The position numbers were made by a program, and so were the translations under genes. Source: Deltaproteobacteria bacterium (GTDB taxonomy: Bacteria > Desulfobacterota > Desulfobacteria > Desulfobacterales > ETH-SRB1). Taken from it: a stretch of DNA of 5,880 bases. The notes under the pieces were generated by a model that was not told the origin of the DNA, did no database searches, and was given only the letters and a program-made list of their open reading frames with translations. Shown in pieces: positions 75-5,810 of this stretch (positions within the stretch are counted from its first letter, which is position 1; every line of letters starts with the position of its first letter). The stretch covers positions 1-5,880 of the forward strand of contig JAUWQK010000099.1 in the NCBI GenBank assembly GCA_030611115.1, read 5' to 3'.

Positions 75-755
75 ATGACAGACAACAAAGATACAAATCA
101 ACTCAATGATGAAGCAAGCCCGGAGGATGATGAAGATATTATAACTCTTACAGATGTTGTCTCGGACACAGAAGACATTGATGATATTGAATTCCCTGAT
201 TATACAGATGAAGCAATCAGTGTTTCAGAAGAAAAAAAAGTCCCTGTCCCTGAGCTTGATGATGATATTTTAGATAATGTAGTTATATTAGAAGACGATC
301 TTAAAGACATAGAAAATAAAGACATAGAATTAGAAGACGACCTTAATAAAGATATAGAATTAGAAGACGACCTTAATAAAGATATAGAATTAGATAATTA
401 TTTAGATGATGAATTTGTCGATTCTACCGATTTAGGTTTAGAATTAGATGCCCCAGAGGATAAAAAATCAGAGGATAAAAAACAGGATATATCCCTTGAA
501 CCTGAGGAAGAATCGGATGAGCTTGGACAGCTAATTGCAGATGTTGTAGAAGACACGCAGGAGAAGGCCGTCTATGAAAAGGAGACTGCTTCTGACATCC
601 ATAATATTCCCTTATCTCCCGAGCAGGTTGACGAAGCTTTAGAAAGAGTTATAAAGAAGATGTATGCCGACAAAATCGACAGTATGCTTACTGAAGTAAT
701 CGAAAAAACAGTCACAAAAGAAATAGAAAGGCTAAAGACTCTTCTGCTCGAATGA
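75..755 (+). CDS. Acidic, repeat-containing protein with helical C-terminus (function unknown, PopZ-like layout)
   Basis: I do not recognise this 226-residue protein as a named family. From the start at 75 (chosen for its GGAGG), roughly residues 1-150 are dominated by Asp and Glu, with few aromatic residues and no predicted fold, signal peptide or membrane segment. It therefore looks like a disordered cytoplasmic region. A 10-residue unit, NKDIELEDDL, is repeated at about 81-110, and EDKK occurs twice at 128-137. A small helical segment (DELGQLIADVVED) begins near 148. The last ~47 residues (180-226) look like two amphipathic helices, beginning LSPEQVDEALERVIKK and ending VTKEIERLKTLLLE. An acidic disordered linker followed by short C-terminal helices is the layout of PopZ-type polar scaffold proteins, but the resemblance is by eye and may be convergent. 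The reading frame is open upstream to base 3, so a start before the window, or at 42, cannot be excluded. An intrinsic terminator follows 40 nt after the stop, so it probably ends its transcription unit. Confidence 0.8.
   Translation: MTDNKDTNQLNDEASPEDDEDIITLTDVVSDTEDIDDIEFPDYTDEAISVSEEKKVPVPELDDDILDNVVILEDDLKDIENKDIELEDDLNKDIELEDDLNKDIELDNYLDDEFVDSTDLGLELDAPEDKKSEDKKQDISLEPEEESDELGQLIADVVEDTQEKAVYEKETASDIHNIPLSPEQVDEALERVIKKMYADKIDSMLTEVIEKTVTKEIERLKTLLLE
315..404 (+). repeat. 30-bp in-frame tandem repeat inside the acidic gene
   Basis: Two near-identical 30-bp units (315-344 and 345-374, one base different, GACATA versus GATATA) are followed by a third that diverges after about 20 bp (375-404). 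Each encodes NKDIELEDDL, the third NKDIELDNYL. A partial related unit (LEDDLKDIE) precedes them from 288. The near-identity at DNA level points to recent duplication by slippage. A 30-bp unit changes length without breaking the frame. Confidence 0.9.
456..485 (+). repeat. 15-bp in-frame direct repeat (EDKK twice)
   Basis: Two adjacent 15-bp copies starting GAGGATAAAAAA (456-470 and 471-485) differ only in the last three bases and encode EDKKS and EDKKQ. This is a second, independent small expansion in the same disordered region. Confidence 0.8.
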
Positions 756-819: not shown

Positions 820-906
820 CAAATTTTAGGGAACAGATGCCAGGGATCAGCGAACCAAAGTAATTAATGATATATTAAAATTTTTTGATTTGAGAAAGAT
901 TAACAT

Positions 907-3567
907 ATGACTTCAAATATTCTTCCTAAGGGTTATGAACCACATGAAGTAGAAAAACGCTGGTATGATTTCTGGGAAAAAGAACAGCTTTTTGCAGCCA
1001 AAGATGAAAGCTCTCAAAAACCATACTCAATAGTAATACCCCCGCCGAACGTAACAGGCGTTCTCCATATGGGCCATGCCCTCAATATTACAATGCAGGA
1101 TATTCTCTGCCGGTACAGGAGAATGCACGGCGACAATGTATTATGGATGCCGGGCACCGACCACGCAGGTATCGCAACTCAGAACGTTGTGGAAAAAAAG
1201 CTTGCCGGCGATGGGCGTGACCGTCATCAGTTAGGCAGAGAAAACTTTATTGAGGCTGTGTGGAAATGGCGCAAGGAATACGGCAGCGCAATCATAAACC
1301 AGCTTAAACGTCTTGGAGCATCATGCGACTGGAACCGCGAACGCTTTACCATGGATGAAGGACTGTCACTCGCCGTTCGAAAGGTTTTTGTTCAGCTTTA
1401 TAATGAAGGGCTTATCTACCGCGACAATTATATTATTAACTGGTGTCAGCGTTGCCATACAGCCCTTGCAGATCTTGAAGTAGAACATGAAGAGCATGAC
1501 GGCCATCTTTATCACATAAAATATCCCTCAACCGATGGTTCCGGCGTAATTATTGTTGCAACCACAAGGCCTGAAACGATGCTTGGAGATACAGCGGTTG
1601 CTGTCAATCCTGAAGATGAGCGCTACCGGAATATCGGATATAACGAGATCATACTTCCGCTTATGAACAGGACTATTCCCATAATCAGGGAAAAATATGT
1701 TGATACGTCTTTTGGTACCGGTGCATTGAAAATTACTCCCGCCCATGATCCAAACGACTTTGAGATAGGAAGACGTCATAATCTTCCAAGCATAAAAATC
1801 ATAGGCGATGACGGGTTAATGACATCCGAGGCAGGGCAATTTAAAGGCCTTGACCGTTTCGAATGCAGGGAGGCTGTTCTCAAAGCCCTTAAAAAAGAGG
1901 GCCTTCTCGAAAAAATCGAGCCTCATAAACATAAGGTGGGTCACTGTTACCGCTGCAAAACAGTAGTTGAGCCAAATTTATCCAAACAGTGGTTTGTTAA
2001 TGTTAAACCTCTTGCAAAAAAAGCTGTTAAAGCAGTTGAGGATGGTAAAACAAAAATAATCCCTGAATCATGGACCAAGAATTATTATAACTGGATGAAC
2101 GAAATCAGGCCCTGGTGTATTTCAAGACAAATCTGGTGGGGGCACCAGATACCGGTATGGACCTGCGAAAACTGCAATGAAGTGATCGTTGCCGTTGATA
2201 CTCCGGAAACCTGCCCGAAATGCAACGGCAAAAACCTTGTTCAGGAATCCGATGTCCTTGACACATGGTTCAGCTCAGCCCTCTGGCCCTTTTCCACAAT
2301 GGGCTGGCCTGAAGAAACACCTCTTTTAAAAACCTTTTATCCCACATCGGTTCTTATAACCGGATTTGATATACTGTTTTTCTGGATTGCGCGCATGATG
2401 ATGATGGGCATCCATTTCATGGGAGATGTACCTTTTAAAGACGTTTATATACATGCACTGGTACGCGATGAAGAAGGCAATAAAATGAGCAAGTCAAAAG
2501 GAAATGTAATCGATCCGCTTACTGTTATAGATCACTACGGGACTGATGCATTCCGTTTTACTCTGGCCGCCTTTGCGGCTCAGGGACGCGACATAAAGAT
2601 GTCTGAAAAAAGGGTCGAAGGATACCGCAATTTTGTAAACAAGCTCTGGAACGCCTCCCGTTTTTCCCTTATGCATCTGGATAAAGGCTATGACGACATT
2701 GATTACAATCAACTTTCGCTTCCCGACAGGTGGATTTTATCCAAGCTGAACGCCGCTACGGAAAACGTTAATGACGCGCTGGATAATTACAAGTTCAATG
2801 AAGCTGCCGGGACAATTTACAAATTCGTATGGCACGAGTTCTGCGACTGGTATCTGGAAATAATCAAGCCCACCTTGTACGCAAAAGAAAAGCAAAACGA
2901 GCGTCAGTCAACTCTGAGCGTTCTCCGGCGAGTGCTGCAAGATATACTACTTCTTCTTCATCCTTTTATGCCCTTTGTTACAGAAGAAATCTGGCACAAG
3001 TTGCCGGGAACAGAAGGCTCCATAATGAGGGCGAAATTTCCTGCAAGTTCTTCCGATTATCTGATTACCGAAAAAGACCCTGAAGCTGAATCAAAAATGG
3101 AAGTTATCACAGAAATTATATCCGGCATAAGAAATATAAGGGGAGAGATGAACATAGCGCCGTCTTTAACCCTTGAAGCCTCGGTTCAGTCACAGGATGA
3201 ATTAAAAATTGAAACCTTAAAGCAATATCAGGACATCATAATTAACCTTGCAAGGCTTAAATCATTTTCAGTAAGTGAATCCGGGATAAAGCCAAAATCA
3301 TCTGCAACCGCTATTGTAAATGGAGCTTCGATTTTTGTATCACTTGAAGGTATAATTGACTTTGCAAAAGAGGCTGGCCGCCTTGAAAAGGAAATCAACA
3401 AACTAACAAAAGAACTTTCCGCTGTTTCAAATAAACTGAGCAATGAAAACTTTCTTAACAAGGCACCTGCAGATGTGGTAGAAAAGGTTAAAGAAAAAAA
3501 CACAGCTCTTCTGGAAAAGCAGCAGAAACTTCAGGCAAACCTTGAAAAAATAAAAGAAATCAGATAG
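907..3567 (+). CDS. valS: Valine--tRNA ligase (valyl-tRNA synthetase)
   Basis: This is a complete class I aminoacyl-tRNA synthetase of 886 residues that charges tRNA-Val with valine in the cytoplasm and hydrolyses mischarged threonine. The HIGH signature is HMGH at 54-57 within PPPNVTGVLHMGHAL, and KMSKS is at 526-530, so both halves of the catalytic Rossmann domain are present. The inserted CP1 editing domain shows TTRPETMLGD at 219-228 and TPAHDPND at 277-284. A zinc-ribbon-like set CxxC (420, 423) and CxxC (436, 439) precedes DVLDTWFSSALWP at 449-461. The anticodon-binding helical domain starts near LPDRWILSKL (605) and includes FCDWYLE at 645-651. The last ~70 residues (817-886) form the C-terminal coiled-coil arm typical of ValRS. 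The length is close to the Bacillus-type enzyme and shorter than that of E. coli. The ATG at 907 has only a weak GAGAAAG upstream, and I see no convincing promoter in the AT-rich leader at 820-906. No T-box-like leader is evident. The gene appears intact. Confidence 0.98.
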   Translation: MTSNILPKGYEPHEVEKRWYDFWEKEQLFAAKDESSQKPYSIVIPPPNVTGVLHMGHALNITMQDILCRYRRMHGDNVLWMPGTDHAGIATQNVVEKKLAGDGRDRHQLGRENFIEAVWKWRKEYGSAIINQLKRLGASCDWNRERFTMDEGLSLAVRKVFVQLYNEGLIYRDNYIINWCQRCHTALADLEVEHEEHDGHLYHIKYPSTDGSGVIIVATTRPETMLGDTAVAVNPEDERYRNIGYNEIILPLMNRTIPIIREKYVDTSFGTGALKITPAHDPNDFEIGRRHNLPSIKIIGDDGLMTSEAGQFKGLDRFECREAVLKALKKEGLLEKIEPHKHKVGHCYRCKTVVEPNLSKQWFVNVKPLAKKAVKAVEDGKTKIIPESWTKNYYNWMNEIRPWCISRQIWWGHQIPVWTCENCNEVIVAVDTPETCPKCNGKNLVQESDVLDTWFSSALWPFSTMGWPEETPLLKTFYPTSVLITGFDILFFWIARMMMMGIHFMGDVPFKDVYIHALVRDEEGNKMSKSKGNVIDPLTVIDHYGTDAFRFTLAAFAAQGRDIKMSEKRVEGYRNFVNKLWNASRFSLMHLDKGYDDIDYNQLSLPDRWILSKLNAATENVNDALDNYKFNEAAGTIYKFVWHEFCDWYLEIIKPTLYAKEKQNERQSTLSVLRRVLQDILLLLHPFMPFVTEEIWHKLPGTEGSIMRAKFPASSSDYLITEKDPEAESKMEVITEIISGIRNIRGEMNIAPSLTLEASVQSQDELKIETLKQYQDIIINLARLKSFSVSESGIKPKSSATAIVNGASIFVSLEGIIDFAKEAGRLEKEINKLTKELSAVSNKLSNENFLNKAPADVVEKVKEKNTALLEKQQKLQANLEKIKEIR

Positions 3568-3568
3568 C

Positions 3569-3596
3569 AGGGATCGGGGGTCAGGGATCGGGGATC
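3569..3596 (+). repeat. RGGGRTC heptamer array with G-quadruplex pattern, just after the valS stop
   Basis: Four head-to-tail 7-bp units (starting at 3569, 3576, 3583 and 3590) of consensus RGGGRTC begin one base after the valS stop codon. The G-runs at 3570-3572, 3576-3580, 3584-3586 and 3590-3593 are separated by 3-nt loops (ATC, TCA, ATC). This satisfies the standard four-run G-quadruplex pattern on the coding strand. A lone unit, AGGGATC, also occurs at 842-848 upstream of valS. Confidence 0.85.
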
Positions 3597-3610
3597 AGAT
3601 AGAAAAAAAC

Positions 3611-3754
3611 AAATTTGTACCCGTTCACGGCTTGAAACTTGAAATTGGGGAGAAATTAAAATAGCAATTGGGAATTGGGAAGAACAGTACAAAAGCATGA
3701 AGGCCAAATTTCTAATTTCTAATTTCAATGTTCCGTGAACGCTTACACAAATTT
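3611..3754. repeat. Composite inverted repeat filled with heptamer runs, between valS and nadC
   Basis: Two nested pairs of inverted arms frame this stretch: AAATTTGT (3611-3618) with ACAAATTT (3747-3754), and CGTTCACGG (3622-3630) with CCGTGAACG (3733-3741). Inside are further 7-bp tandem runs: CTTGAAA twice (3631-3644), AATTGGG twice (3666-3679), and AATTTCT, AATTTCT, AATTTCA (3707-3727). No reading frame, U-tract or transposase is present. It could be a small non-autonomous element or a patch of slippage repeats; the sequence alone does not decide. Confidence 0.75.
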
Positions 3755-3771
3755 ATTGTTAATACTATAAT
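3742..3771 (+). promoter_or_regulatory. Probable sigma-70-type promoter of nadC
   Basis: A perfect -10 box, TATAAT (3766-3771), lies 18 bp downstream of CTTACA (3742-3747), a 4/6 match to the -35 consensus. Transcription would start near 3778, giving a leader of about 20 nt before the nadC ATG. The right arm of the CGTTCACGG inverted repeat ends at 3741, directly against the -35 box. Confidence 0.6.
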
Positions 3772-3797
3772 ACTTATGTCAGCCACCTGAATTATTT

Positions 3798-4628
3798 ATG
3801 CATTCAATACAACATTTAATAAAAATCGCCCTTGAAGAAGATATCGGCCCCGGAGATATTACGACTGAAAACCTTATTGATAAAAATCTTAAAGGAATCG
3901 GCGAAGTTGTTGCAAAGGAACCTCTTGTAATCGCAGGCCTTGATGTTGGCCGCCAGGTTTTTGAACAACTTGACCCTGATATTTCTTTCAGGCCGAATTT
4001 CAAGGATGGCGATTTTATCGAAAAAGGCAAAATCGTGCTGGAAGTTGAAGGCAAACTTCGTGTCTTGCTGATGGGTGAACGTACCGCCCTAAATTTCCTG
4101 CAGCACCTTTCAGGCATCGCAACGCACGTTCGCTCATATATGGACAGTATTGCAAACAAAAATGTCCGCCTCGTTGATACACGCAAGACAACTCCCGGCT
4201 GGCGGGTTTTGGAAAAATATGCAGTCCGGGTCGGCGGAGCCCATAATCACCGCATGGGTTTATATGATGGTGTCCTGATCAAGGACAATCACATTGCTGT
4301 TTGCGGCGGCATAAAAAAAGCCATAGAAAGCATCAAAGATAAATTATCCCATCTTGTAAAAATAGAGGTGGAAGTTTCTGATCTGGATGGCATAAAGCAA
4401 GCATTAGAAGCCGGTGCCGACGTTATCATGCTGGACAATATGGACATAGACCAGATAAAAGAAGCAATTGAATTCATCAATGGAAAATCTGTGGTTGAAA
4501 TCTCAGGTGGCGTAACAATAGACAGCCTGAATCAGCTTGCCGATACAGGGGTAGACATCATTTCAGCAGGCGCCCTCACCCACTCTGCAAGAAGCGTTGA
4601 TATCAGCATGCGAATCAAATCAATCTGA
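3798..4628 (+). CDS. nadC: Nicotinate-nucleotide pyrophosphorylase (quinolinate phosphoribosyltransferase)
   Basis: This 276-residue enzyme converts quinolinate and PRPP to nicotinate mononucleotide, CO2 and pyrophosphate, the step that joins de novo quinolinate synthesis to NAD formation in the cytoplasm. The length is normal for the family. The N-terminal domain carries EEDIGPGDITT near residue 14 and the GERTALNFLQHLSGIAT helix near 90-110. The C-terminal barrel carries the substrate-binding signatures DTRKTTPG (127-134), GGAHNHRMGLYDG (146-158), LIKDNH (160-165), KIEVEV with acidic E190 and E192, MLDNM (211-215), EISGGV (234-239) and a closing SAGALTHSA. All the key basic and acidic residues expected for the active site are visible, so it should be active. 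The ATG at 3798 is the only plausible start before an in-frame stop at 3768, but no Shine-Dalgarno precedes it. nadA and nadB are not in the window. A good promoter lies immediately upstream, so it is likely transcribed on its own. Confidence 0.97.
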   Translation: MHSIQHLIKIALEEDIGPGDITTENLIDKNLKGIGEVVAKEPLVIAGLDVGRQVFEQLDPDISFRPNFKDGDFIEKGKIVLEVEGKLRVLLMGERTALNFLQHLSGIATHVRSYMDSIANKNVRLVDTRKTTPGWRVLEKYAVRVGGAHNHRMGLYDGVLIKDNHIAVCGGIKKAIESIKDKLSHLVKIEVEVSDLDGIKQALEAGADVIMLDNMDIDQIKEAIEFINGKSVVEISGGVTIDSLNQLADTGVDIISAGALTHSARSVDISMRIKSI

Positions 4629-4650
4629 TATCTCATATGCGTCTGTTGAA

Positions 4651-4681
4651 TTATCCATTTATCTTTTTAAAAAAGTATAAC
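4651..4681 (+). promoter_or_regulatory. Weak candidate promoter for the rhomboid gene
   Basis: TATAAC (4676-4681) matches the -10 consensus at 5/6, but the best -35-like hexamer at suitable distance, TTATCC (4651-4656, 19-bp spacer), is poor. If used, the transcript would begin near 4688, at the left arm of the GTTCAC inverted repeat. Confidence 0.25.
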
Positions 4682-4684
4682 AAG

Positions 4685-4779
4685 TGTTAACAGTTCACGG
4701 TTCACAGTTTTTTCAATGAACTATGCAACGACTGAAGCATTTTAACCGTGAACTGTAAACTGTTAACTGTGAACCGTTA
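4685..4779. repeat. GTTCAC heptamer arrays forming an inverted repeat before the rhomboid gene
   Basis: The left side carries heptamers of consensus RGTTMAC (4685-4705). The right side carries five head-to-tail heptamers of consensus ACYGTDA (4745-4779), the same family on the other strand. They contain a perfect 13-bp inverted pair, ACAGTTCACGGTT (4690-4702) and AACCGTGAACTGT (4744-4756), separated by 41 nt. The array stops 6 nt before the ATG at 4786 and has no U-tract after the right arm, so it is not a classical terminator. The GTTCACGG core is shared with the arms at 3622-3630 and 3733-3741. Confidence 0.85.
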
Positions 4780-4785
4780 CAACAA

Positions 4786-5754
4786 ATGATACCCATCCGC
4801 GACACAATCCGCACCAAAACCTATCCCCTAATCAACAATGCCCTCATCGCCATCAACGTGGTATTCTTCCTGGTAGAACTGTCTCAGGGGCCGGGGCTGG
4901 AACGCTTTATATACATGTACGGACTTGTGCCTGCCCGTTACACCATTCCCCAAATTGCATCTTATTTTACGACAGGTCAGCAGCTTGTCTCACTCATTAC
5001 CTTCATGTTTCTTCACGGTGGATTCTGGCACCTTCTTGGCAACATGTGGTCTCTTTACATTTTTGGCGACAATATTGAAGAGCGCCTGGGCCCCCTGCGC
5101 TATCTGGCTTTTTATATGATATGCGGTCTTGCGTCAGGCCTTTCCCACCTTGTTTTTAACTATAATTCAACAATGCCAACAATTGGGGCAAGCGGTGCAA
5201 TTGCAGGAGTAATGGGAGCCTACTTTATTCTCTTTCCAAAAGCAAAAATATTGACCCTTATACCGATATTTTTTATACCCTATTTTATTGAGATACCCGC
5301 ATTTTTCTTTTTAGGCATATGGTTTATCTTTCAGTTCCTCAGCGCAGCGGGAAGCCACGGCCAAATGACAGGCATTGCATGGTGGGCTCACATAGGCGGA
5401 TTTATCTTCGGCATAATCTTTTTAAAACTGTTCCTTGCCCTGCCCGGAGGCGGTGTCAGCGAGAAGCTGCGGAAGATGACCGAAAAAAAGAAATCCTACC
5501 GTCTGCAGGTTATCCGACCTGTCGGGATGGCAAATGATCCAAACCTTTACGGCACAATTACTATCACACCCCTTGAAGCCATTACAGGAACCCGGAAGCT
5601 GGTAAACATCCCCTGGGGTTTTCAGAAAAGGCTTTTTAAAGTAATCGTTCCTCTCGGCATGAAAGAAGGAAGCCTGCTGAAGCTGAGAGGGATGGGAAAA
5701 GATGCGCCCCACGGACAGAAAGGTGATCTTTTACTTAAGGTTGCTATTCAGTAA
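4786..5754 (+). CDS. Rhomboid-family intramembrane serine protease with C-terminal DnaJ_C-like domain
   Basis: This 322-residue membrane protein would cleave transmembrane substrates within the inner membrane. About six hydrophobic segments lie near residues 16-34, 67-90, 104-122, 133-150, 153-184 and 199-218. The catalytic dyad is visible: Ser136 in GASG (134-137) and His202 in WWAHIGG. The supporting HxxxN motif is H82-N86 in the second membrane segment. The N-terminus, MIPIRDTI, is typical of this rhomboid branch and supports the first ATG, although there is no Shine-Dalgarno and a repeat array runs to within 6 nt. After a basic linker (about 225-240), residues 250-322 resemble a DnaJ C-terminal peptide-binding domain: LYGTITITPLEAITGT (254-269), a VIVPLGMKEGSLLKLRGMG stretch (286-304) and a final GDLLLKVAI (313-321). 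No J-domain HPD and no zinc-finger cysteines are present. With six membrane spans the tail should be cytoplasmic. The rhomboid assignment is firm; the DnaJ_C assignment is by motif recognition. Substrates are unknown. Confidence 0.93.
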   Translation: MIPIRDTIRTKTYPLINNALIAINVVFFLVELSQGPGLERFIYMYGLVPARYTIPQIASYFTTGQQLVSLITFMFLHGGFWHLLGNMWSLYIFGDNIEERLGPLRYLAFYMICGLASGLSHLVFNYNSTMPTIGASGAIAGVMGAYFILFPKAKILTLIPIFFIPYFIEIPAFFFLGIWFIFQFLSAAGSHGQMTGIAWWAHIGGFIFGIIFLKLFLALPGGGVSEKLRKMTEKKKSYRLQVIRPVGMANDPNLYGTITITPLEAITGTRKLVNIPWGFQKRLFKVIVPLGMKEGSLLKLRGMGKDAPHGQKGDLLLKVAIQ

Positions 5755-5781
5755 TAATTTAGTAACTACTCACGTAGTCAG

Positions 5782-5810
5782 GCTGAAGCTGTTTAGACTG
5801 AAGGCTGAAG
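5782..5810 (+). repeat. RCTGAAG heptamers downstream of the rhomboid gene
   Basis: GCTGAAG (5782-5788), ACTGAAG (5797-5803) and GCTGAAG (5804-5810) form a short degenerate run, the last two directly adjacent. A single ACTGAAG also sits at 4731-4737 in the spacer of the upstream inverted repeat. The rest of 5755-5880 holds no convincing gene or terminator. Confidence 0.6.

What the first reader, a model, noticed from the sequence alone, without database searches (positions are those of the whole stretch)
3568..5810. Several distinct families of 7-bp tandem repeats fill every gap after valS
All three noncoding stretches downstream of valS carry short runs with the same 7-bp period but different sequences: RGGGRTC (3569-3596), CTTGAAA (3631-3644), AATTGGG (3666-3679), AATTTCT (3707-3727), RGTTMAC and its complement (4685-4705, 4745-4779) and RCTGAAG (5797-5810). 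A shared period with unrelated units suggests a common generating mechanism, such as slippage with a fixed step or a templated enzyme, or selection for helical or structural spacing, rather than copies of one element. Cyanobacterial heptamer STRR repeats are a known parallel; I do not know a named equivalent for this lineage.
Basis: partly seen in the sequence, partly recalled or inferred. Interest (0 to 1): 0.7.

Follow-up and report, generated by a model that had tools for sequence, protein, structure and literature searches.

The report
Heptamer repeats are S23-element arms
The odd 7-letter DNA repeats between these genes are mostly the arms of decayed mobile elements that once carried a small four-helix-bundle (S23) gene, and the same link between such genes and short repeats appears in several bacterial phyla.

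Summary
Every gap after valS carries 7-bp arrays where stated, and period 7 is in strong excess in intergenic DNA of the two closest genomes. E1 (3617-3746) has an exact 8-bp target duplication, E2 (4687-4780) a 7/8 one; the relative L001 lacks both. A complete 505-bp E1 copy (L286) carries a PF05635 'S23' four-helix-bundle gene between its arms; the window's E1 and E2 keep only last codons of such genes. This is general: 42 of 57 full-length S23 genes have period 7-9 arrays in their flanks, against 9 of 51 same-locus control ORFs; 20 of 28 against at most 9 of 352. The set includes cyanobacterial plasmids and a Nitrospinota genome. The repeat word follows the protein subfamily above about 60% identity. 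E1 copies often differ by whole 7-bp units. Against: only 9 of 77 array clusters lie near a recognisable S23 gene. What S23 does, and why the step is 7, are inferred.

The parts
3568..3598 (+). E0: four GGGRTCR units starting right after the valS stop codon; single array; same words as the arms of S23 loci L302, L308, L310
   Evidence: TRF; 26 nt at 96% and 30 nt at 87% to the two arms of L302, 31 nt at 90% to L310, 31 nt at 84% to L308; the best hit (29 nt at 93%) is an array in L303 some 650 bp from the S23 gene there; no partner arm reported in the gap, no duplication sought beyond reading
3609..3616 (+). left 8-bp target duplication of E1, ACAAATTT
3617..3746 (+). E1: 130-bp deletion derivative of an S23 element; ends GTACCCGTTCACGG..CCGTGAACGCTTAC, heptamer arms CTTGAAA/AATTGGG and AATTTCT, core keeps ..NSTKA* (last codons of the S23 gene)
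   Evidence: both arms match complete element L286 1434-1938 at 87% and 90%; frame read
3747..3754 (+). right 8-bp target duplication of E1, ACAAATTT
4679..4686 (+). left target duplication of E2, AACAAGTG (7/8 to the right copy)
4687..4780 (-). E2: deletion derivative of an S23 element; arms RGTTNAC and complement; core 4709-4743 reads on the minus strand VKMLQSLHSSLKKL*, like the C-terminus of an S23 protein
   Evidence: (4693-4743, 51 nt at 96% to L296)
4781..4788 (+). right target duplication of E2, AACAAATG; its ATG is the predicted rhomboid start codon
5762..5880 (+). E3: start of a third dispersed element (GTAACTACTCACG.., heptamers RCTGAAG at 5797-5810); runs off the window; complete copies elsewhere 164-172 bp
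   Evidence: end shared with IS66-type element L219 (GTAACTACTCA); no S23 remnant recognised
829..855 (+). degenerate GGGATCA units upstream of valS; none in L009, about 5-6 in L001 at the same place
   Evidence: counted by eye
907..3567 (+). valS (flanking gene)
3798..4628 (+). nadC, quinolinate phosphoribosyltransferase (flanking gene)
4786..5754 (+). rhomboid protease with DnaJ_C-like tail (flanking gene)

Best explanation
The heptamer arrays are the arms, or solo remnants of arms, of small mobile elements built as [array] - S23 gene (four-helix-bundle '23S rRNA intervening sequence protein', PF05635) - [usually inverted array]. In this lineage the E1, E2 and E3 types also carry IS66-like ends (GTAA.. 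and near variants), and many copies are flanked by 8-bp target duplications; probably an IS66-family transposase moved them in trans (inferred; none found in the two genomes). Most copies then lost the S23 gene by internal deletion, leaving MITE-sized elements such as the window's E1 and E2. Inside the arms, units are gained and lost in 7-bp steps, by slippage or unequal exchange (inferred from lengths). Because both arms have the same period, they stay complementary when unit number changes, so the transcript can still fold into a stem around the gene, as in 23S rRNA intervening sequences. SHOWN: insertion, ends, target duplications, 7-bp length steps in E1, S23 gene between arms, S23 remnants in window E1 and E2, the array-S23 association in more than one phylum, repeat word following protein subfamily. 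INFERRED: the transposase, the slippage mechanism, binding of the arms by the S23 ring, RNase III processing. E0 is assigned by word match only; E3 by its ends only.
For: Target duplications: 23 of 93 TIR-defined candidates (some overlapping) match 7/8 or better at offset 0, 0-2 at other offsets within 8; 29 of 2817 ends-only candidates against 3 in control flanks. L001 lacks E1 and E2. 7-bp length steps; E1 copies at the same place in G001 and G002 differ by single units. L286: 505 bp, TIR 13/14, duplication 8/8, PF05635 E 9.6e-24. Arrays flank 20 of 28 S23 genes cut only by PF05635 score, against at most 9 of 352 control ORFs; 42 of 57 against 9 of 51; 10 of 12 on plasmids (no plasmid control); 4 of 6 in the phylum of G445; 0 of 17 ParE-like ORFs. 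Empty sites without array: L359, L360, L363; arms with no S23 annotated: L362. Arm words alike (score 18 or more) in 18 of 37 pairs at 60% protein identity or more, 8 of 1145 below; reversed control 2 of 37 and 14 of 1145; one pair group crosses phyla (L325 with L335/L336). Arm-arm pairs at least 12 in RNA folds of 45 of 57 against 17 of 76 controls. The Coxiella IVS paper reports variable GACAGAT heptamers just upstream of its S23p ORF (PMC4990558, passages).
Against: Only 9 of 77 period-7 array clusters lie within 600 bp of a recognisable S23 gene (random 0.2-1.6%); the rest are solo. 8 of 28 S23 genes show no array at the threshold; arm complementarity beats the control's 95th percentile in only 14 of 28, and in L396 both arrays run in the same direction. 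9 of 51 same-locus control ORFs also have arrays. No PF03050 match in G001 or G002, and the 36-40 nt printed of IS66 ends show no heptamers. In 23 S23 loci of G001/G002 a scan for GTA..TAC ends gave one complete element, L286, and an E3-like remnant in L295, so IS66-type insertion explains only some families. Among all gaps between orthologous G001/G002 blocks, 7 is only mildly raised (6: 8, 7: 11, 8: 3). E3 has no recognisable S23 remnant; E0 no partner arm.
Confidence: 0.75

Rival explanations
1. Independent polymerase slippage with a preferred 7-bp step makes heptamer arrays anywhere in intergenic DNA; S23 genes are unrelated or only tolerate them. This is the hypothesis that Rehm et al. 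attribute to their reference 33 (Mrazek 2007, name recalled).
For: Unit number also changes outside recognisable elements: CTGACCA x1 in L104 against about x6 in L184 (by eye); GGGRTCA none, about 2 and about 5-6 units before valS. Most arrays have no S23 gene near. PMC4692102 discussion read.
Against: Strong enrichment at S23 genes; arrays arrive with the S23 gene at empty sites; words shared between clades, 13 against 3.7 +- 1.8 in composition-matched permutations, the two searched words left out; E1/E2 are dispersed inserted copies.
Confidence: 0.35
2. The arrays are simply the inner part of the terminal inverted repeats of IS66-driven MITEs, and the S23 gene is a passenger.
For: GTA..TAC ends, 8-bp duplications; six of 38 IS66 loci scanned have GTAA ends with 8/8 duplications (L208, L218, L219, L220, L222, L223), L219 with GTAACTACTCAGG; L196 has GTAACTTCTCAATAACC ends without a matching duplication.
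Against: S23 genes without such ends still have 7-9-mer arms, on plasmids of other phyla too; no heptamers in the printed IS66 ends.
Confidence: 0.3
3. Arrays are kept for a structural or regulatory role at gene ends, e.g. G-quadruplex formation by E0.
For: E0 has four G3+ tracts 4 nt apart right after a stop codon, the arrangement described for GGGNATC repeats (PMC4692102, abstract, passages).
Against: Fits only G-rich words; unit number at orthologous places is not conserved.
Confidence: 0.15
4. S23 elements choose pre-existing heptamer arrays as insertion targets.
For: Arrays on both sides of the gene; solo arrays exist.
Against: Empty sites in Nostoc and Calothrix plasmids have no array; E1 and E2 sites in L001 have none.
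Confidence: 0.08

Closest known systems
23S rRNA intervening sequences (IVS) with S23p ORF, e.g. of Coxiella burnetii (PMC4990558, introduction and passages seen)
   Same: S23p-type ORF inside complementary arms that form a stem; Coxiella's has 2-3 heptamers before the ORF, varying by strain
   Different: Here the elements lie between protein genes, are dispersed and multi-copy, have long heptamer arms, and in some families IS66-like ends and 8-bp duplications
Heptanucleotide STRR / GGGNATC / TAACTGA repeats (cyanobacteria, Xanthomonas, Beggiatoaceae; PMC4692102, PMC4679880)
   Same: 7-bp units, intergenic, variable number; Xanthomonas arrays partly in inverted pairs (70 cases Xcc, 75 Xac)
   Different: The main texts of those two papers hold no mention of S23 or four-helix proteins (supplements not seen); here arrays are tied to S23 elements
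Geobacter metallireducens multicopy elements (four GGGACCG; paired sites with five MTYCTGA on opposite strands; PMC2700814, section 14 and passages seen)
   Same: Paired inverted heptamer arrays in what was then the same class
   Different: Described as regulator-binding sites or regulatory RNA; no S23 link in the main text
IS66-family insertion sequences and MITEs in general; a MITE holding a minisatellite is reported in Porphyromonas gingivalis (PMC4596501, listing and start of abstract only)
   Same: GTAA-type ends, 8-bp target duplication (IS66); tandem repeats inside a MITE (P. gingivalis)
   Different: No heptamer arms in the printed ends of IS66 copies; here an S23 gene, not a transposase, lies between the arms

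Membership tests
23S rRNA intervening sequence (IVS) | inserted in an rRNA gene | tested here: not met
   window elements lie between valS, nadC and rhomboid genes; no Rfam match at gathering score
23S rRNA intervening sequence (IVS) | S23p-type ORF | tested here: met
   complete relative L286; window copies keep only C-terminal codons
23S rRNA intervening sequence (IVS) | complementary arms forming a stem | tested here: met
   window E2; 45 of 57 S23 loci against 17 of 76 controls
23S rRNA intervening sequence (IVS) | excision by RNase III | not testable with these tools
   none
IS66-type MITE | GTAA-type inverted ends | tested here: met
   E3 GTAACTACTCA exact; window E1 GTACCC../..CTTAC and E2 TTAACA../..GTTAC are near variants of the GTAGCC/GTAAGC and GTAACS ends of other copies
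IS66-type MITE | 8-bp target duplication | tested here: met
   E1 8/8, E2 7/8; population peak at 8; E3's far end is off the window
IS66-type MITE | matching transposase in the genome | tested here: not met
   PF03050 in 0 of 2 genomes G001/G002, 6 of 17 in the family, 59 of 146 in the order; drafts, so loss in assembly is possible; the window's own genome is not held
Heptanucleotide STRR | tandem 7-bp units in intergenic DNA, variable number | tested here: met
GGGNATC G-quadruplex repeats | four G3 tracts able to fold as quadruplex | tested here: inconclusive
   E0 has the tracts; folding not tested
REP/RAYT elements | partner Y1 transposase | not tested
   no search made

The most novel reading that the evidence does not exclude
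Most bacterial heptamer repeat families (STRR, GGGNATC, GTTCACR and others) are arms or solo remnants of one superfamily of S23-gene elements that exists far outside rRNA. Each S23 subfamily reads its own 7- to 9-nt word, as a ring protein bound to tandem repeats in RNA or DNA, and the step of 7 is the spacing of that binding.
Probability: 0.35. Interest if true: 0.93.

Novelty: new variant of a known kind. Interest (0 to 1): 0.84.

Why it matters
Heptamer repeats have been listed in bacteria without an accepted origin (PMC4692102), and S23p proteins are said to have no known function (PMC4990558). If the two are parts of one element, both questions become testable: the protein has a candidate ligand (its own flanking repeat word), and the repeats have a candidate source. 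My searches of the held library (listings, four papers opened) showed no paper making this general link; the Coxiella paper notes heptamers beside one S23p ORF.

Tried and rejected
Window genome: none held, so G001 (ValS 89%) and G002 (ValS 97%, contig ends in valS) stand in. IS66 as the source of the arrays: set aside, none seen in the 36-40 nt printed of its ends (no array test was run on whole IS copies). A pure 'MITE makes period 7' reading: dropped after bare arrays turned up in other genomes (16 of 297 genomes hold the GTTCACR pattern; loci read) and after S23 loci without GTA ends. Reverse-complement partner within 300 bp: 34 of 57 period-7 runs, against 17 of 259 (period 5), 21 of 135 (period 6), 5 of 14 (period 8), not length-matched. 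Enrichment of TGA/TCA in units (34 of 85 words against 20.8) was seen but words are related, so no weight was put on it. An unspecific duplication scan without end motif gave no excess over offset controls; only among its 8-bp hits did GTA-ended elements stand out (12 of 27). First S23 motif regex found 1 of 23 loci because minus-strand loci were not turned and the pattern was too narrow; redone with an HMM on both strands. Same-locus controls lie in array-rich neighbourhoods and are unverified ORFs, so searches are also given; I kept 17 of 30 loci by a rough motif, and 3 of the 17 look spurious. Of 39 plasmid hits 12 were read, and the ORF ends of two unannotated ones (L338, L342) were guessed. 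Reverse association is weak. E3 core: no S23 found (reading). A paper search for the Avd/S23 ring gave nothing useful.
Full report
What is there. The window holds an acidic ORF, valS, nadC and a rhomboid gene. The listed 7-bp runs are real and in place. In contigs taken by number, period 7 exceeds shuffles far more than periods 5 or 6 in intergenic DNA: G001 36 against 2.6, G002 9 against 1.6; period 8 is raised too, on small counts (4 against 0.2, 2 against 0.2). Counting arrays of at least three exact copies, period 7 leads, though in the 78 valS loci of relatives more than half of the longer runs sit in one locus, L004.

Dispersed elements. The gap stretches match many places in G001 and G002 (52 and 58 matches for the whole query, gene matches included, from 40 scored candidates each). 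They resolve into E1, E2 and E3. Candidates defined by their ends show 8-bp target duplications: 23 of 93 (some overlapping) at offset 0, at most 2 at other offsets within 8; 29 of 2817 with looser ends against 3 in control flanks, exact duplications 14 at k=8, 1 at k=7, 0 at k=9. 19 of those 29 hold an exact heptamer run. In the window E1 is flanked by ACAAATTT on both sides and E2 by AACAAGTG/AACAAATG, the latter holding the rhomboid start codon. L001 has the same gene order and neither element.

Seven-base steps. 31 E1 copies have lengths 93 x4, 100 x3, 107 x4, 114 x3, 125, 130 x4, 135, 137, 139, 144, 146, 151, 153, 156, 176, 206, 244, 260. Of 1149 gaps of 1-39 nt between copies, 363 are 7, 110 are 1, 96 are 39 (a recurrent insert), 90 are 14. 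Between blocks of G001 and G002 at the same place, 11 gaps of 7 were found (8 of 6, 3 of 8); five of the 11 lie in E1 arms. A bare CTGACCA site has one unit in L104 and about six in L184. Before valS, L009 has no GGGRTCA unit, the window about two, L001 about five or six.

Ends. IS66-family transposase genes were sought because GTAA ends with 8-bp duplications are what I recall for that family. None is in G001 or G002; 6 of 17 genomes of the family and 59 of 146 of the order have one. Of 38 loci scanned, six had GTAA ends with an exact 8-bp duplication, L219 with the E3-type end GTAACTACTCAGG. The printed ends (36-40 nt) show no heptamer array.

The S23 gene. Long E1 copies contained ORF pieces, which led to PF05635: 23 matches in G001 and G002, 0 of 14 named control genomes. 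L286 is a complete E1: 505 bp, inverted ends 13/14, duplication TAAAAATA 8/8, ORF with PF05635 E 9.6e-24 and TIGR02436; its frame runs past ..FINSTKA into a short insert. Other S23 genes there have, by eye, their own arms: GGTTCAC, AAGTCAG/AGGTCGG, TCGACAT, CGAAATC, GCGGTTA, ATTATCA, and 8-mers. Window E2 reads VKMLQSLHSSLKKL* on the minus strand; the decayed L296 copy, with a PF05635 match, ends KMLQSLHSSLKKP*. Window E1 ends NSTKA*. E0 has the words of the L302, L308 and L310 arms.

Generality. From the order of G001, 87 of 116 genomes have PF05635; the best locus of 29 of them was cut and 28 had usable flanks. Lag-7, -8 or -9 periodicity (20 of 28 positions) was in 15, 3 and 2, and no other period 4-12; 352 control ORFs gave 6, 2 and 1. 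On plasmids, tblastn with one S23 protein found 39 records, mainly cyanobacteria; of 12 read, 7 had lag 7 and 3 lag 8. Six genes from the phylum of G445 (Nitrospinota by the title of L077) gave 3 and 1. 17 ParE-like ORFs gave none. Pooled full-length set without those six: 42 of 57 against 9 of 51 same-locus control ORFs, P 3e-9; by group 9 of 11, 19 of 25, 10 of 12, 4 of 9. Arm sequences are alike in 18 of 37 pairs with at least 60% protein identity and 8 of 1145 below; pairs at 65% link L325 of G001's order with cyanobacterial L335 and L336. Arm complementarity exceeds the control's 95th percentile in 14 of 28; RNA folds put at least 12 pairs between the arms in 45 of 57 against 17 of 76. 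L396 is an exception with both arrays in one direction.

Empty sites. On Nostoc plasmids one gap is empty in L359 and L360 with no array, filled in L337 and L361 with (GGGAACA)n-S23-(TGTTCCC)n of different unit number, and in L362 holds arms with no S23 gene annotated. L363 (Calothrix) is the empty counterpart of L332. So arrays come with the S23 gene and seem able to outlive it.

Limits. Only 9 of 77 period-7 clusters lie within 600 bp of a recognisable S23 gene (1 of 16, 7 of 40, 1 of 21; random 0.2-1.6%). Remnants as short as those in the window would be missed, but independent slippage cannot be excluded for solo arrays. E3 is tied in by ends only. The mover of S23 elements without GTAA ends is unknown. 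Binding of arms by S23 and the reason for 7 are proposals.

Known work. PMC4990558 (introduction and found passages) describes the Coxiella IVS with variable heptamers before the S23p ORF. PMC4692102 (abstract, introduction, discussion, passages) describes GGGNATC heptamers and cites a polymerase-footprint idea. PMC4679880 (outline with abstract; a term search found no S23) and PMC2700814 (section 14 and passages) describe other heptamers. The only PDB relative by sequence is 2gsc, XCC0516; that the S23p of Xanthomonas is a pentameric ring is from the Coxiella paper's introduction.

Noticed in passing
window 4786-5754: Rhomboid domain followed by a C-terminal DnaJ_C-like domain in one ORF; the L001 gene looks alike by eye.
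   Followed up: no
window 315-394: 30-bp tandem repeat (2.7 copies) in the first, very acidic ORF.
   Followed up: no
L331, L332, L334: S23 genes sit tightly between operon genes: cas6/cas4, nrdB/nrdA, cas10(cmr2)/cmr3 on cyanobacterial plasmids.
   Followed up: partly
L097 315-420: Half an E1 runs directly into an ORF that looks MiaB-like by eye; the element's ATG seems to serve as its start codon.
   Followed up: no
L094 4743-4982, L103 1882-2102: E1 nested inside another GTAAC-ended element (GTAACAATTTAGCC..GTGTTAC) with its own 8-bp duplication (8/8 and 7/8).
   Followed up: partly
L140, L182, L184, L185: A 39-bp palindromic insert (CCCGCCCGCCTCGCC..GGCGGGCAGG, either direction) recurs inside the E1 core of several G001 copies.
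   Followed up: no
L111 3809-3934 and 11782-11961: Another dispersed palindromic element, GTAGGGGCGA..TCGCCCCTAC, absent at the corresponding places of L174 (G001).
   Followed up: no
L149, L150, L141, L175: E6: inverted TTCAATCTTC/ATATTCA heptamer arms around a GCGAAGCGATTCC core, without GTAA ends seen; in L149 next to an S23-like gene (G001:C20:5212-5514, 134-aa frame).
   Followed up: partly
L282, L285, L291, L317, L321; L316, L329: Some S23 genes have 8-mer arms and two have 9-mer arms, which may account for part of the period-8 minority.
   Followed up: partly
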